Origin: JBFJWU01 sp041623475 [NCBI: bacterium] | Lineage (GTDB): Bacteria > J088 | Assembly (NCBI GenBank): GCA_041623475.1 | Contig: JBFJWU010000209.1 | Location: 1 to 6,252, forward strand | Reading direction: 5' to 3' | DNA length: 6,252 nucleotides | Shown here: positions 1,817 through 6,180 of the stretch, in pieces | Position numbering within the stretch: position 1 is the first letter of the stretch | How the letters are laid out: each line of letters begins with the position of its first letter | Position numbers and translations under genes: made by a program | Notes under the pieces: model-generated | Databases searched by the model: none | Told to the model about the DNA's origin: nothing | What the model saw: the letters and a program-made list of their open reading frames with translations, nothing else

Positions 1817-1854
1817 CAACCGCCCGACCCGCGGTTGCCATCAGCGGGCGTTTT
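1817..1854 (+). other. Two mutually exclusive hairpins upstream of tRNA-Gln
   Basis: Seen directly: CAACCGC (1817-1823) can pair with GCGGTTG (1831-1837), a perfect 7-bp stem with a 7-nt loop. Alternatively CGCCCG (1821-1826) can pair with CGGGCG (1845-1850), immediately followed by TTTT (1851-1854). The two structures share bases and cannot coexist. In the + direction the second resembles a weak intrinsic terminator in front of the tRNA gene. In the - direction the region is the 5' leader of the PGPGW gene. I saw no good sigma70 promoter for the tRNA in 1850-1888. The stems are short and the region is GC-rich, so chance is possible. Confidence 0.25.
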
Positions 1855-1888
1855 ACATACATTGAAAGCCTGTCGAAACGGCAGTAAC

Positions 1889-1963
1889 TGGGGTATCGTC
1901 TAACTGGCAGGACTCTGGATTCTGGTTCCAGCTATCAAGGTTCGAATCCTTGTACCCCAGCCA
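1889..1963 (+). tRNA. glnV: tRNA-Gln, anticodon CTG, CCA encoded
   Basis: A complete 75-nt cloverleaf read by eye. Acceptor TGGGGTA (1889-1895) pairs with TACCCCA (1953-1959), giving the weak U1-A72 pair typical of bacterial tRNA-Gln. Anticodon stem CTGGA (1915-1919) pairs with TCCAG (1927-1931) around loop TTCTGGT, placing anticodon CTG at 1922-1924, which reads CAG codons. T-stem CAAGG (1936-1940) pairs with CCTTG (1948-1952) around TTCGAAT. G1960 is the discriminator and CCA is encoded at 1961-1963. The acceptor, T-loop and 3' end closely match E. coli tRNA-Gln(CUG). It stands alone rather than in a tRNA cluster, and its 3' end is the first copy of the tandem repeat that follows. The symbol is by analogy with E. 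coli. Confidence 0.97.
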
Positions 1964-2191
1964 TTTCTTACGCTCGCGACGTGGGCGTTCCAGGCAACCG
2001 GCTACGTGGTCAACAAACCGCCATTCGCCACTTGCGTGCTCGAATCCTTGTACCCCAGCCATTTCTTACGCTCACGACGTGGGCGTTCCAGGCAACCGGC
2101 TACGTGGTCAACAAACCGCCATTCGCCACTTGCGTGCTCGAATCCTTGTACCCCAGCCATTTCTTACGCTCGCGACGTGGGCGTTCCAGGC
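1942..2191. repeat. 2.55 tandem copies of a 98-bp unit carrying the tRNA-Gln 3' end
   Basis: The unit copies are 1942-2039, 2040-2137 and a partial third 2138-2191 (54 bp). Each begins with the last 22 nt of tRNA-Gln, from within the T-loop through CCA (1942-1963, 2040-2061, 2138-2159), followed by a 76-bp spacer starting TTTCTTACGCTC. Homology stops sharply on the left (T1941 versus C2039 and C2137) and on the right after CCAGGC. The copies are identical except for A2074 in copy 2, where copies 1 and 3 have G. Copies 2 and 3 lack the 5' T-stem strand CAAGG, so they cannot fold as tRNAs. The architecture parallels E. coli tyrT, where 178-bp repeats carrying about 19 bp of the tRNA-Tyr 3' end lie downstream of the tRNA and give rtT RNA. 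Transcription of this copy is inferred, not shown. No variable spacers are present, so it is not CRISPR. Confidence 0.95.
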
Positions 2192-2220
2192 CTATACAAA
2201 TTCGGCAGATTAGTAGCGCC

Positions 2221-3885
2221 CTAAAACCGGTCAGCCGAAGCCAGGTTCCACAGGCGCATCCAGTCGGACGGTGCTTCGCCATCGACCAGGCTCTCGCGCT
2301 GTAACAAAGGATAGATGTCGGCAAATGAGCGAACATCTGTCGGCGAGACCCGGCGATAAATGTGATACGGTTGCAAGTCTTTTGGATGTTCCAACCCCGC
2401 AGCGCCCAACAGTTCGTAGGCGCTGGCAACGGTTTTCGCATGGAACTGGTGAACCCGCTTCGCTTTGTCGCCAACCACCAGGCCTTTTTCCAGTCGAGGA
2501 TCCTGGGTCGCGACTCCAACCGGGCAGTGGTTGGTGTTGCACTTGAGCGCCTGAATACACCCCAGGGCAAACATCATGGGGCGAGCCGCATTTACAAGGT
2601 CAGCACCCAGGGCCAGCAATCGCAGGATGTGGAATCCCGTTGTGATCTTGCCGGCTGCAATCAGCTTGACTCGATCGCGCAATCCGACACCCACCAGCGC
2701 CCGATGGATATACATCAGCCCGTTGTCCAGCGGTACGCCAACCGAGTTGGCAAATTCCAGCGGCGCCGCCCCGGTACCGCCTTCGGCCCCGTCTACGGTG
2801 ATAAAATCCGGTGTGATCCCGGTTTCCAGCATCGCCTTGCATAACCCCAGGAACTCCCGGCGACTGCCCAGGCAAAGCTTGAAACCAATCGGTTTCCCAC
2901 CTGACAACTTGCGCATCTGCCGGATAAACTCCAGCAACTCAATTGGCGTCGAAAACGCTGTATGTGCCGGCGGTGAATGAACACTGACACCAGGCTCAAC
3001 ACCCCGGATCCTTGCAATTTCCGGAGTCACTTTGGCAGCGGGCAGGATACCGCCGTGTCCGGGCTTCGCCCCCTGTGACAGCTTCAGCTCAATCATCTTG
3101 ACCGCGTCAATCGAGGCGGTCTCGGCAAACTTGTCCGGATCAAAGCCGCCGTCACTGGCCCGGCAGCCAAAATATCCGGTCCCGACCTGCCAGACCAGGT
3201 CACCGCCTGGCTCCAGGTGATAGGGGCTGATCCCGCCCTCGCCGGTATTATGCGAAAATCGACCGGTCTGCGCGCCCTTGTTCAATGCCAGGATGGCATT
3301 GCGACTAAGCGCACCGTAGCTCATTCCCGACACGTTCAAAAGCGAACTCCTGTAGGGACGTGAACAGTTGGCGCCACCAATCGGGATCCGAGCCTCTTCT
3401 GATCGCGCATTCCGCGCTGCAATTGAATGATTGATCCATTCGTAGCCAACGCGATTCACGTCCCGCATTGTACCGAACGGCATCGTGTCCAGTTGGCCTT
3501 TGGCCCGCTGGTAAATGATCGATCGTTTTTCGCGACTGAACGGGTTTTCTTCCGAATCGGACTCGACGAAGTACTGGCGGATTTCCGGCCGGATCGATTC
3601 CAGAACGTAACGGAGGCGGCCAAGAACCGGGAAATTCCGCCGGATCGTGTGCTGGGTCTGGAGGATGTCCGAGATGCCCAGCCACGCATAAGGGACAACA
3701 ACAACCAACCCGAGTGCCGCCCAGCGATTCCAGACCGTCAGCCCGCCAACCAAAAGCGTCAGCAAACCCAGCGACACCAGGTACGCGGTAACCGACCATT
3801 TCTCGATAATGCCCGGCACCCTTGCCGGTGCCGGGGAATGCAACCGACGGGTATCTGGAACTGCGGGCTGGTTGGATTGGCTCAC
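2221..3885 (-). CDS. Membrane-anchored FMN-binding glutamate synthase family protein (GltB synthase domain only)
   Basis: A 554-residue protein with the FMN/[3Fe-4S] synthase domain of glutamate synthase, where glutamine-derived ammonia and 2-oxoglutarate form glutamate in the classical enzyme. Two hydrophobic segments lie at about 33-52 and 56-71, placing the catalytic part at the inner membrane. Core motifs are NTGEGG (213-218), AKPGHGG (273-279; GltB has KPGEGG), VDGAEGGTGAAP (364-375, flavin phosphate region) and Cys443, Cys449 and Cys454 with CX5CX4C spacing, as in the GltB 3Fe-4S cluster. There is no N-terminal Cys1 glutaminase domain and no adjacent GltD-like subunit, so the ammonia and electron donors are unknown and true glutamate synthase activity is not established. 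Start: GTG at 3885, set by a perfect AGGAGG with a 6-nt spacer. It resembles stand-alone proteins such as Bacillus YerD. It is convergent with the tRNA repeat locus (29 bp away) and divergent from the MFS gene. Confidence 0.92.
   Translation of the reverse strand: MSQSNQPAVPDTRRLHSPAPARVPGIIEKWSVTAYLVSLGLLTLLVGGLTVWNRWAALGLVVVVPYAWLGISDILQTQHTIRRNFPVLGRLRYVLESIRPEIRQYFVESDSEENPFSREKRSIIYQRAKGQLDTMPFGTMRDVNRVGYEWINHSIAARNARSEEARIPIGGANCSRPYRSSLLNVSGMSYGALSRNAILALNKGAQTGRFSHNTGEGGISPYHLEPGGDLVWQVGTGYFGCRASDGGFDPDKFAETASIDAVKMIELKLSQGAKPGHGGILPAAKVTPEIARIRGVEPGVSVHSPPAHTAFSTPIELLEFIRQMRKLSGGKPIGFKLCLGSRREFLGLCKAMLETGITPDFITVDGAEGGTGAAPLEFANSVGVPLDNGLMYIHRALVGVGLRDRVKLIAAGKITTGFHILRLLALGADLVNAARPMMFALGCIQALKCNTNHCPVGVATQDPRLEKGLVVGDKAKRVHQFHAKTVASAYELLGAAGLEHPKDLQPYHIYRRVSPTDVRSFADIYPLLQRESLVDGEAPSDWMRLWNLASADRF
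3812..3835 (-). other. Perfect 9-bp GC hairpin inside the 5' coding region of the glutamate-synthase-like gene
   Basis: CCCGGCACC (3812-3820) is an exact inverted repeat of GGTGCCGGG (3827-3835) with a 6-nt loop. In the mRNA of the minus-strand gene it starts about 50 nt after the GTG, in codons for the P-A-P-A-R-V-P-G segment before the first membrane segment. It could affect early elongation or mRNA stability. It lacks a T-tract, so it is not an intrinsic terminator. The structure is certain as an inverted repeat; a function is speculative. Confidence 0.5.
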
Positions 3886-3973: not shown

Positions 3974-5185
3974 ATGCACAGAAACTTGAAGTTATATCCG
4001 TATTATGCGGCTTCCTCACAGGCCCTGTTCTGGTTACCAGTCTATATGCTGTACTTTGTCAGCGAACTGGGTCTTGCACAGGCGCTGCTGCTGGAATCCA
4101 TCTACTACGGTACGGTTGTCCTGCTGGAGTTGCCGTCCGGGTATCTGTCGGACCGCTGGGGTCGGCGTGTTGTCCTGATCGCTGCGGGACTGGCCGGGTT
4201 TATTGCCCATGGCCTGTTCGTTGGCAGCGATACGTTTGCCGGTTTTGCCATCGCCCAGATGCTTTTGGCCGCATCAATTGCCTTTCGATCCGGTAGCGAC
4301 ACCTCACTGCATTTCGACAGCCTGGTCCTGCACGGCGATCCGGACGAGTACGGGAAACGGGAAGCCCGTATTGAACGCATCAGCTTCGTGGTGACCGGCG
4401 CCGCTGCGATCCTGGGCGGTGCCGCCGCCACAGTGGACCTGCGGGGCGCATTTGTGCTGGCCGCCATCGCGTCGCTGATCGAAACGGTTCTGGCCGCGTC
4501 TATGAACGAACCATTGTTGCCCGGCCAGCGGGCCAGGAAAATTGCCAGTCAGGCTCGTGCCATCGGCCGTTCCCTTGGCCCGACCTATGTGCGCTGGCTG
4601 TTTGGATTCGGTGTTGTGATGACGGTCCTCAACCACATCCCCTACGAGTTCTACCAGCCGCTGATCGATCGTTTTGCCGACAGCCTGGCGGCACATCAGG
4701 TCCCGACACCTGTGATGACAGCGGCCCACGCAGCCCTGGCGATGTTTGTCGCCGCGCCGGTTGCCGGCTGGAGTACCGCGGTCGCCAGGAGGATCGGAAC
4801 GCCCGCGTGCCTGATGATGGCCGCCATCCTGCAGGCCGCGATTATCTGCTTGATGGCATGGATTGCCCATCCCGTTGTTGTTTTCGCACTACTGCTGCGC
4901 AGCGTCCCGCGGGCATTGATGACAGCTCCGCTTCGTGCGGCTATTGCGCCCCATGTGGGCAGCAGCCTGCGGGCGACCTGGCTGTCACTGCAGAGTCTGG
5001 TTGGCAGATTGGGGTTTGCGGCCGTGTTGGTTGCCCTGGGTACTTCAGCCAGCCAGGGCATCTACTCGGCGTTGCTATTGTCCGCGCAACTGACCCTGGC
5101 TTTGATTGCAGTCCTGGGGGCCTTTGGCGCAATCGCGTGGACGAACCGTCACCCGCCCGACGGGCAGGTTTCCGAAGGCTTATAA
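3974..5185 (+). CDS. Major facilitator superfamily (MFS) transporter
   Basis: A 403-residue inner-membrane secondary transporter, about the usual 400 for a 12-helix MFS protein. The N-terminal half carries motif A between helices 2 and 3 as GYLSDRWGRR (residues 56-65), preceded by E-L-P, a combination common in drug/efflux-type MFS proteins. The rest is a series of Ala/Leu/Val/Ile-rich segments with short charged loops, including a longer central basic loop (PGQRARK) typical between helices 6 and 7. Substrate cannot be read from the sequence. I chose the ATG at 3974 (MHRNLKLYPYY) because a short basic N-terminus directly before helix 1 is usual. In-frame alternatives are ATG 3953 and GTG 3920; none has a good SD. 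It is divergent from the glutamate-synthase-like gene, with a short (about 90 bp) shared upstream region. Its 3' end overlaps the next, convergent gene by 37 bp. Confidence 0.88.
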   Translation: MHRNLKLYPYYAASSQALFWLPVYMLYFVSELGLAQALLLESIYYGTVVLLELPSGYLSDRWGRRVVLIAAGLAGFIAHGLFVGSDTFAGFAIAQMLLAASIAFRSGSDTSLHFDSLVLHGDPDEYGKREARIERISFVVTGAAAILGGAAATVDLRGAFVLAAIASLIETVLAASMNEPLLPGQRARKIASQARAIGRSLGPTYVRWLFGFGVVMTVLNHIPYEFYQPLIDRFADSLAAHQVPTPVMTAAHAALAMFVAAPVAGWSTAVARRIGTPACLMMAAILQAAIICLMAWIAHPVVVFALLLRSVPRALMTAPLRAAIAPHVGSSLRATWLSLQSLVGRLGFAAVLVALGTSASQGIYSALLLSAQLTLALIAVLGAFGAIAWTNRHPPDGQVSEGL

Positions 5186-6054
5186 ACTTTTGTGCGGAGC
5201 GCTTCGATGGGCTCCATCAAGGGGTCCCACAGGTATTTGTCATACTTGCCGGATTCAACGGCCTCGTGAAAACGTTCCCGCAGGTAGACCGAAAGTTCGA
5301 ATGTATATTGGGATGCGACATCAACGGGACAGACCCGGTCAATCAGGTCGAGCGCCTGAAAGGCTGCATCGCGCCCGACACGCTGCATCTCCGCTTCTGC
5401 GTACACCACGTACCATAGCGCGTAATGTCGCTCCATCAACGGCCGCACCTGATCCAGGTATGCGTAACCCTTTTTCAGGGAGCCGACGCTCATTGGAAAC
5501 GGCGGCAGTTTTATATACGCTTTAGCCATTCCCAACGTTGCCGTACCAAACATGTAACTATTGTCGCGGGAATTGGCTTCTTCCAGTCGCTTGAAAAATG
5601 CTGGTACTTGATTCAGGAAATCAAGGACCCCGTTGATCAACGCCTCGTAGCCCCAGAAAATTGCTGACCACATTGGCCCGGCCGCGCTGTCCGCATGATC
5701 AGCCGCAACGCGATCAGACGTCTTCCGGCCGATTCGGGCCACGCGGATTCGTTCCGACTTGTCCTGCGGCAAGGATTGCCACCACAGGTTGACATAGCTG
5801 AGTGTCCATTCGCCGTACTCACGGCGACCGGTTGAAACGTACTGGTCCCAGAGGTGCTTGATAAACGGTTCGACATCATGAACACCGGCGACAACGTTAC
5901 GAATTCGATCGTAATTGGTCCCAATCGGACCAAACGGGTCAAACAGATCCAGATCCAGGTCTTCGGGGCGCACCGCCAGTCCGGTTGCCGGCAATGCCAG
6001 GACAGCGGCCCCGCCGACGCAGTTGGCCAGCAATGTTCTACGATTCTGTTTCAC
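5149..6054 (-). CDS. Secreted helical protein, possibly TRAP-transporter T-component (TatT)-like
   Basis: About 301 residues with an export signal: K-Q-N-R-R-T-L-L-A then a hydrophobic stretch to A27 (ALPATGLA), a plausible signal peptidase site. The twin arginine followed by T-L-L suggests Tat export, though Sec is possible. LANC at 9-12 is a poor lipobox. The mature part is helical. A stretch W129-SAIFWGYEAL, then PAFFKRLEEA (151-160), then Y-x-K-L-P-P-F-P-M-S-x-G-S-L-K-K-G-Y (180-197) and WYVVYAEAEMQ (214-224) recalls the TPR-like TatT family, in which a helical repeat is followed by a G/S-containing loop and a YAE/YA segment. No TRAP P, Q or M genes are nearby, so the assignment is tentative. 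Start: GTG 6054 gives a compact signal peptide. ATG 6099 is an in-frame alternative (316 aa). The TTG at 6207 would overlap the divergent gene. The stop lies inside the 3' end of the MFS gene. Confidence 0.7.
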   Translation of the reverse strand: MKQNRRTLLANCVGGAAVLALPATGLAVRPEDLDLDLFDPFGPIGTNYDRIRNVVAGVHDVEPFIKHLWDQYVSTGRREYGEWTLSYVNLWWQSLPQDKSERIRVARIGRKTSDRVAADHADSAAGPMWSAIFWGYEALINGVLDFLNQVPAFFKRLEEANSRDNSYMFGTATLGMAKAYIKLPPFPMSVGSLKKGYAYLDQVRPLMERHYALWYVVYAEAEMQRVGRDAAFQALDLIDRVCPVDVASQYTFELSVYLRERFHEAVESGKYDKYLWDPLMEPIEALRTKVYKPSETCPSGG

Positions 6055-6180
6055 AATTGTCCCAGGGTTCCGGCCGCACTTGCACGTGCTGCTCGACATC
6101 CACGTTAGCAGGCTGGACAATATAGGCAACAACTTTCCAGACCCTGTATCGACGCGATAGGGTACAGGGACGAGCCATCC
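6055..6180. promoter_or_regulatory. Divergent intergenic region between the TatT-like gene and the right-edge gene
   Basis: About 126 bp separates the two divergent starts and must hold both promoters if both genes are real. On the minus strand there is an AT-rich patch (CCTATATTG near 6116-6124), but I could not fit a convincing -35/-10 pair, nor any operator-like palindrome. It is listed for position only. Confidence 0.3.

What the first reader, a model, noticed from the sequence alone, without database searches (positions are those of the whole stretch)
1889..2191. tRNA-Gln gene followed by 98-bp tandem repeats of its own 3' end (tyrT-like design at a different tRNA)
Seen in sequence: 2.55 near-identical 98-bp units begin exactly inside the T-loop and each carries the terminal 22 nt of tRNA-Gln(CUG), including CCA. 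Established: the E. coli tyrT locus has tandem 178-bp units with about 19 bp of tRNA-Tyr 3' end, processed to rtT RNA and linked to the stringent response. Here the tRNA, period and spacer all differ, suggesting an independent case of the same design. Inference: the primary transcript could be cut at each CCA end by tRNA 3'-processing enzymes, releasing 98-nt RNAs or acting as a processing decoy. The alternative is a passive recombination scar.
Basis: partly seen in the sequence, partly recalled or inferred. Interest (0 to 1): 0.78.

Follow-up and report, generated by a model that had tools for sequence, protein, structure and literature searches.

The report
tRNA-Gln with tandem 3'-end repeats
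A bacterial glutamine-tRNA gene is followed by two and a half near-identical 98-base repeats, each starting with the last 22 bases of that tRNA; this is most likely a fossil of DNA recombination at the tRNA's end, in the style of the E. coli tyrT repeats, and not a proven RNA-making device.

Summary
tRNA-Gln(CUG) lies at 1889-1963, with 98-bp units at 1942-2039, 2040-2137 and 2138-2191 (partial). Each unit starts in the T-loop and carries the last 22 nt of the tRNA, CCA included. Copies 1 and 2 differ at one base; partial copy 3 matches copy 1 at 54/54. Structurally, three 54-bp cores (22 nt tRNA end + 32 nt flank) alternate with two 44-bp inserts, the layout of attL-remnant-att-remnant-attR.

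My reading is a recombination relic: a short, once-integrated segment at the tRNA 3' end, later amplified. RNA function is unproven. The unit folds no better than shuffles, has no RtT match, and downstream copies do not refold the T-arm or acceptor stem. No close relative and no second copy of the spacer were found, so conservation is untested.

The comparable E. coli tyrT array also starts inside the T-loop, and annotated RtT copies in that operon range from 4 to 1 between strains, which fits recombinational instability. A control-checked pattern found no second self-copy array of this start and spacing in 411 genomes or in IMG/VR. Verdict: a real new instance of a rare known kind; the independent-rtT reading is possible but unsupported.

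The parts
1835..1863 (+). promoter-like site (TTGCCA-17-TACATT) upstream of the tRNA
   Evidence: consensus scan, 9 of 12; shuffles mean 0.2; not evidence of function
1889..1963 (+). tRNA-Gln(CUG) gene, intact, CCA encoded
1942..2039 (+). repeat unit 1; its first 22 nt are the tRNA's own 3' end
2040..2137 (+). repeat unit 2; 1 difference of 98 from unit 1 (2074 A); starts with truncated tRNA end 2040-2061
2138..2191 (+). partial repeat unit 3, 54 nt, identical to unit 1; starts with truncated tRNA end 2138-2159
1942..1995 (+). 54-bp core copy 1 (22 nt tRNA + 32 nt flank), candidate attL-like; further core copies at 2040-2093 and 2138-2191
   Evidence: sequence; identity stops at 2191; att role inferred
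1996..2039 (+). 44-bp insert copy 1, between cores 1 and 2; identical second copy at 2094-2137

Best explanation
A recombination relic at a tRNA 3' end. Inferred history: a DNA element joined the chromosome at the T-loop/3' end of tRNA-Gln, leaving the tRNA intact and displacing a 54-bp copy of the target (22 nt of tRNA + 32 nt of flank). Almost all of the element was lost, leaving a 44-bp remnant between the two 54-bp repeats. Unequal recombination or slippage between the 54-bp repeats then made a second 98-bp unit. Shown: the geometry core-insert-core-insert-core, the T-loop boundary, 99-100% identity, the intact tRNA. Inferred: the element, its loss, the amplification. A simple tandem duplication whose edge fell in the T-loop by chance is the nearest version without an element and is included in the stated confidence. 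The array would sit in the tRNA's 3' trailer if transcription runs on, with no needed product.
For: Three 54-bp cores alternate with two identical 44-bp inserts, and homology ends at a core end. A displaced 3' tRNA fragment beside an intact tRNA is the standard mark of islands in tRNA genes: Islander (PMC4383910, passages) lists 3760 of 3919 islands with a 3' fragment, 125 tandems, and 1836 islands in a class that pools T-loop and T/acceptor-junction crossovers. PMC3146451 (passages) describes insertion in the middle of the ssrA T-loop with several direct repeats of its 3' end downstream. PMC2647930 (passages) gives putative att sites of 49, 60 and 104 bp in tRNA genes, one with the T-loop, so a 54-bp core is an ordinary length. 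Viral stretches L123 and L124 carry the same 22 nt without an ARAGORN tRNA, 42 bp past a tyrosine-integrase gene (PF00589, E 1.7e-26), which suggests tRNA-Gln ends serve as integration targets. E. coli tyrT is unstable in copy number: in the 27 listed rows that cover the query from end to end, annotated RtT copies in the operon number 4, 3, 2 and 1 in 11, 4, 7 and 5 rows. Unit folds match shuffles.
Against: No integrase among the five main ORFs scanned in the window. The spacer was not found in phages, plasmids or viral contigs. The viral blocks seem by eye to start at the anticodon loop, not the T-loop, and a third such stretch (L125) was not tied to an integrase. The core is longer than tyrT's roughly 21 nt. 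No empty or single-copy site in a relative was found, so the order of events is unproven. Near identity of units would also be expected under selection. In one search all 27 end-to-end rows keep at least one RtT, so the tyrT comparison does not speak for a wholly dispensable product.
Confidence: 0.62

Rival explanations
1. An independent rtT-like element: the tRNA-Gln transcript runs through the array and processing releases small RNAs that act in regulation, as proposed for E. coli rtT.
For: Same layout as tyrT; promoter-like site upstream and no terminator-like site between 1750 and 2320, so trailer transcription is plausible; truncated self-copies were seen only here and in tyrT among 779 tRNAs in 184 held sequences; all 27 end-to-end E. 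coli rows keep at least one RtT copy.
Against: No RtT match even at E 10, while tyrT scores four times; fold energy ordinary; no relative to show conservation; in E. coli the number of RtT copies is not conserved.
Confidence: 0.15
2. A transcription-termination or insulation zone: a C-rich, G-poor trailer repeated to favour Rho-dependent termination of the tRNA transcript before the convergent glutamate-synthase-like gene.
For: No intrinsic terminator found; 1964-2191 has C-G = 25, above 98% of 228-nt windows on both strands, and YC = 38 (82nd percentile); 1.8% of windows reach both. Rho-dependent termination in tyrT is recalled, not read.
Against: YC count is ordinary; composition alone is weak; the tyrT trailer has C/G of only 1.2.
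Confidence: 0.1
3. A processing decoy: the repeated tRNA ends compete for tRNA maturation enzymes or for the tRNA 5' strand.
For: UACCCCA is present three times and can in principle pair with UGGGGUA of the tRNA.
Against: Predicted pairing with the true 3' strand is 0.72-0.89, with each decoy 0.04-0.06; in the 75-nt stretches tested the truncated copies leave their 3' ends unpaired and form no T-arm.
Confidence: 0.04
4. Assembly artefact in copy number: one or more units are misassembled from short reads.
For: No genome is held for the window, so it may be metagenomic; a 250-bp array can exceed short reads.
Against: The middle copy has its own variant base and the two flanks differ from each other and from the unit.
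Confidence: 0.07

Closest known systems
E. coli tyrT/tyrV operon with RtT (Rfam RF00391)
   Same: tRNA followed by tandem units that each carry its 3' end; the array starts inside the T-loop; last unit partial
   Different: tRNA-Tyr, 178-bp units, core about 21 nt against 54 nt here, two tRNA genes with a further RtT copy between them, no RtT match in the window
tRNA-targeted genomic islands (Islander class: intact tRNA with displaced 3' fragment)
   Same: intact tRNA plus displaced 3' fragments in the same orientation; T-loop is a named crossover subsite
   Different: Islander requires an integrase and at least 2 kb between tRNA and fragment; here 44 bp lie between cores and no integrase was found in the window
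Dehalococcoides ssrA islands (PMC3146451)
   Same: T-loop insertion with several direct repeats of the RNA gene's 3' end downstream (passages)
   Different: tmRNA, 20-bp repeats separated by whole islands, serine recombinase

Membership tests
RtT RNA family (RF00391) | covariance-model match | tested here: not met
   no match at gathering or up to E 10; control L128 scores 132.9-137.5 bits four times
tyrT-like design (tRNA with tandem copies of its own 3' end) | two or more truncated copies of the tRNA 3' end at regular spacing downstream | tested here: met
rtT-like small RNA | discrete RNA released from the tRNA transcript | not testable with these tools
   no transcript data
rtT-like small RNA | conserved spacer or structure in relatives | tested here: inconclusive
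   no close relative found; no listed match reaches past window position 1974 (thresholds differ)
tRNA-integrated island | displaced 3' tRNA fragment, same orientation, downstream | tested here: met
tRNA-integrated island | integrase gene between tRNA and fragment | tested here: not met
   only 44-bp inserts lie between cores; none among the five main ORFs of the window

The most novel reading that the evidence does not exclude
An independently evolved rtT-like element at tRNA-Gln: a tRNA transcript that yields 98-nt-periodic small RNAs. More generally, T-loop integration relics could be a recurring source from which bacteria make tRNA-trailer RNAs, with tyrT as an older example.
Probability: 0.12. 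Interest if true: 0.65.

Novelty: new member of a known kind. Interest (0 to 1): 0.36.

Why it matters
Truncated self-copy arrays behind tRNA genes are rare in what I searched. A second array that also starts inside the T-loop suggests a common origin, integrase-type recombination at the T-loop, for this array and tyrT; that idea can be tested by a genome-wide survey. If the array is transcribed and processed, it would show how a small-RNA gene can arise from an integration scar.

Tried and rejected
Taxon and relatives: no genome is held for the window. A genome-contig scan with the glutamate-synthase-like protein gave at best 65% identity. The TPP enzyme reached 46% in 34 genomes and 58.8% on a Caballeronia plasmid record. 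The PGPGW protein matched in 1 of 24 genomes, the protein at 5149-6060 only weakly in 2 of 50. tRNA-Gln identity peaked at 87% in the phylum of G002, whose record title says Sandaracinus (Myxococcota). The source phylum stays open.

Invalid searches: the first survey pattern failed its own positive control on the window (one base too long, and a G excluded)., launched in the same turn, are therefore void and not counted. The corrected pattern finds the window and none of 132 loci then held. It gave 1 of 202 genomes, 0 of 209 genomes and 50 viral stretches. None of these 51 is a self-copy: the best shares 18 of 22 nt. The pattern would not find tyrT (different start and spacing), so it measures only this narrow design.

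tRNA-Glu in L105 and L106 first looked like self-copies; they are complete second tRNA-Glu genes. The open frames through the array (all three plus frames stop-free; so are 4% of base shuffles) are judged spurious. Matches of the array in phages and plasmids were short scattered pieces with best E 0.07 among the 6 phage rows and 0.2 among the 10 of 26 plasmid rows shown.

Literature: eight full-text searches showed no listed paper on this design at tRNA-Gln. I saw listings only, apart from passages of PMC2647930, PMC4383910, PMC4986893 and PMC3146451. The original rtT and tRNA-sublocation papers are not held.

Full report
What is there. An intact tRNA-Gln(CUG) with encoded CCA lies at 1889-1963. 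From the second base of its T-loop (1942) to 2191 runs a direct tandem repeat of period 98 without indels. Copy 2 differs from copy 1 at one of 98 positions; the 54-nt third copy is identical to copy 1.

A more useful description. Because homology ends inside unit 3, the array is best written as core(54)-insert(44)-core(54)-insert(44)-core(54). The core is 22 nt of tRNA plus 32 nt of flank. The last core runs into a different flank 29 bp before the convergent FMN-glutamate-synthase-like ORF at 2221-3885. An ancestor with one core followed directly by that flank is the simplest single-copy state. From it, one event added insert plus core, and one recombination between cores added the second unit. 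This history is inference.

Does it work as RNA? A single unit folds no better than shuffled sequence in either phase (z -0.13 and -0.06); tRNA plus array has z -1.28. In the long transcript the tRNA acceptor pairs with its true 3' strand with probability 0.72-0.89 and with each downstream copy at 0.04-0.06; a 75-nt stretch ending at a downstream CCA leaves that tRNA end unpaired, with no T-arm or acceptor stem. From recalled enzymology, tRNase Z and related enzymes need that substrate, and an encoded CCA disfavours tRNase Z, so cleavage at each CCA is unlikely. Trailer transcription itself is plausible: a promoter-like site lies at 1835-1863 and no intrinsic terminator was seen between 1750 and 2320. 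The trailer is C-rich and G-poor (98th percentile for C-G, 82nd for YC), so Rho-dependent termination is a fair minor hypothesis.

Comparison with tyrT. In E. coli K-12 (L128) the tyrT array has 178-bp units, 3.1 copies, beginning with AATCC inside the T-loop and ending in a partial unit of about 21 nt, essentially the tRNA end. Rfam RtT matches this operon four times, three in the array and one between the two tRNA genes, and does not match the window even at E 10. A 1.4-kb query over the operon matches at least in part in 5375 of 5426 E. coli genomes, and 3654 have a place covering 80% or more. Of the 60 records listed at even steps out of 5391, 27 are covered from one end of the query to the other; the other 33 cover less and were left out. 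In those 27, annotated RtT copies number 4, 3, 2 and 1 in 11, 4, 7 and 5 rows, with spans of about 1400, 1220-1229, 1038-1049 and 870 bp, i.e. steps of about 178 bp (my count from the table). Which copies are lost was not determined. So the known relative in design varies in copy number, as recombination between repeats predicts; against a purely dispensable reading, all 27 rows keep at least one RtT. PMC4986893 (passages) says RtT-family RNAs come from the tyrT transcript and many other tRNA operons and modulate the stringent response; I did not read the original work.

Integration as origin. Islander (PMC4383910; passages) states that islands in tRNA genes leave an intact tRNA and a displaced fragment, that 3760 of 3919 have a 3' fragment, and that crossovers fall at the anticodon loop, the T loop or the T/acceptor junction, the last two pooled as 1836 islands. 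PMC3146451 (passages) describes insertion in the middle of the tmRNA T-loop with several 3'-end direct repeats downstream. PMC2647930 (passages) gives putative att sites of 49 to 104 bp in tRNA genes, one of 60 bp with the T-loop, beside a prophage remnant. An exact scan of viral contigs with the 22-nt tRNA-Gln end gave 6 stretches. Three (L122, L126, L127) lie in complete tRNA-Gln genes. Three (L123, L124, L125; the first two share the same sequence at this site) have no ARAGORN tRNA. In L123 and L124 the match lies 42 bp past the end of a tyrosine integrase gene; in L125 no integrase was identified (ORFs listed, not scanned). Their shared block appears by eye to begin at the anticodon loop, so they suggest that tRNA-Gln ends are integration targets, not that this site used the T-loop. 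Against this origin: no integrase among the five main window ORFs, and no second occurrence of the spacer.

Rarity and relatives. Of 779 tRNAs in the 184 sequences held (66 of them Gln; 71 of the 779 had less than 600 bp downstream), five have a copy of their last 15 nt within 600 bp downstream: this one, the two tRNA-Tyr of tyrT, and two tRNA-Glu that are full gene duplications. The control-checked pattern found no self-copy array in 202 genomes of the phylum of G002 (Myxococcota by record title; 1 unrelated hit), 209 of the phylum of G026 (Pseudomonadota by record title), or IMG/VR (50 hits, none self-copies). An earlier version failed its control and is void. DNA searches with 1880-2215 over 50, 235, 349, 199 and 12 genomes (sets overlap in part) listed matches only over the tRNA and at most 11 nt beyond, never past window position 1974 (in 25, 26 and 28 only two or three candidates a genome were scored, at strict thresholds). 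The organism remains unidentified.

Conclusion. The feature is real and rare in the searched material. The best reading is a passive recombination product at a tRNA 3' end, probably an integration scar that was amplified (0.62). An independent rtT-like RNA is possible (0.15) but has no positive evidence beyond layout. Interest lies in the shared T-loop start with tyrT, which makes the origin of such arrays testable by a genome-wide survey.

Noticed in passing
window 1853-2062 (-) and 1950-2213, 1981-2304, 2006-2224 (+): Open frames run through the tRNA and array on both strands; likely spurious.
   Followed up: partly
L128 (E. coli tyrT) and rows: Annotated RtT copies in the tyrT operon vary from 4 to 1 among the 27 end-to-end rows, with spans falling in steps of about 178 bp.
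   Followed up: partly
L123 8954-8975 and 9018-9923; L124 7110-7131 and 7174-8079: Phage stretch (portal gene in L123) with a tyrosine integrase beside a block matching a tRNA-Gln from about the anticodon loop (by eye) to CCA.
   Followed up: partly
window 5149-6060 (-): Protein of about 300 aa without a Pfam match; by eye it resembles TRAP-associated TatT proteins (recalled, not tested).
   Followed up: no
window 5352-5389: Short 19-bp x 2 imperfect tandem repeat (84%) inside that gene.
   Followed up: no
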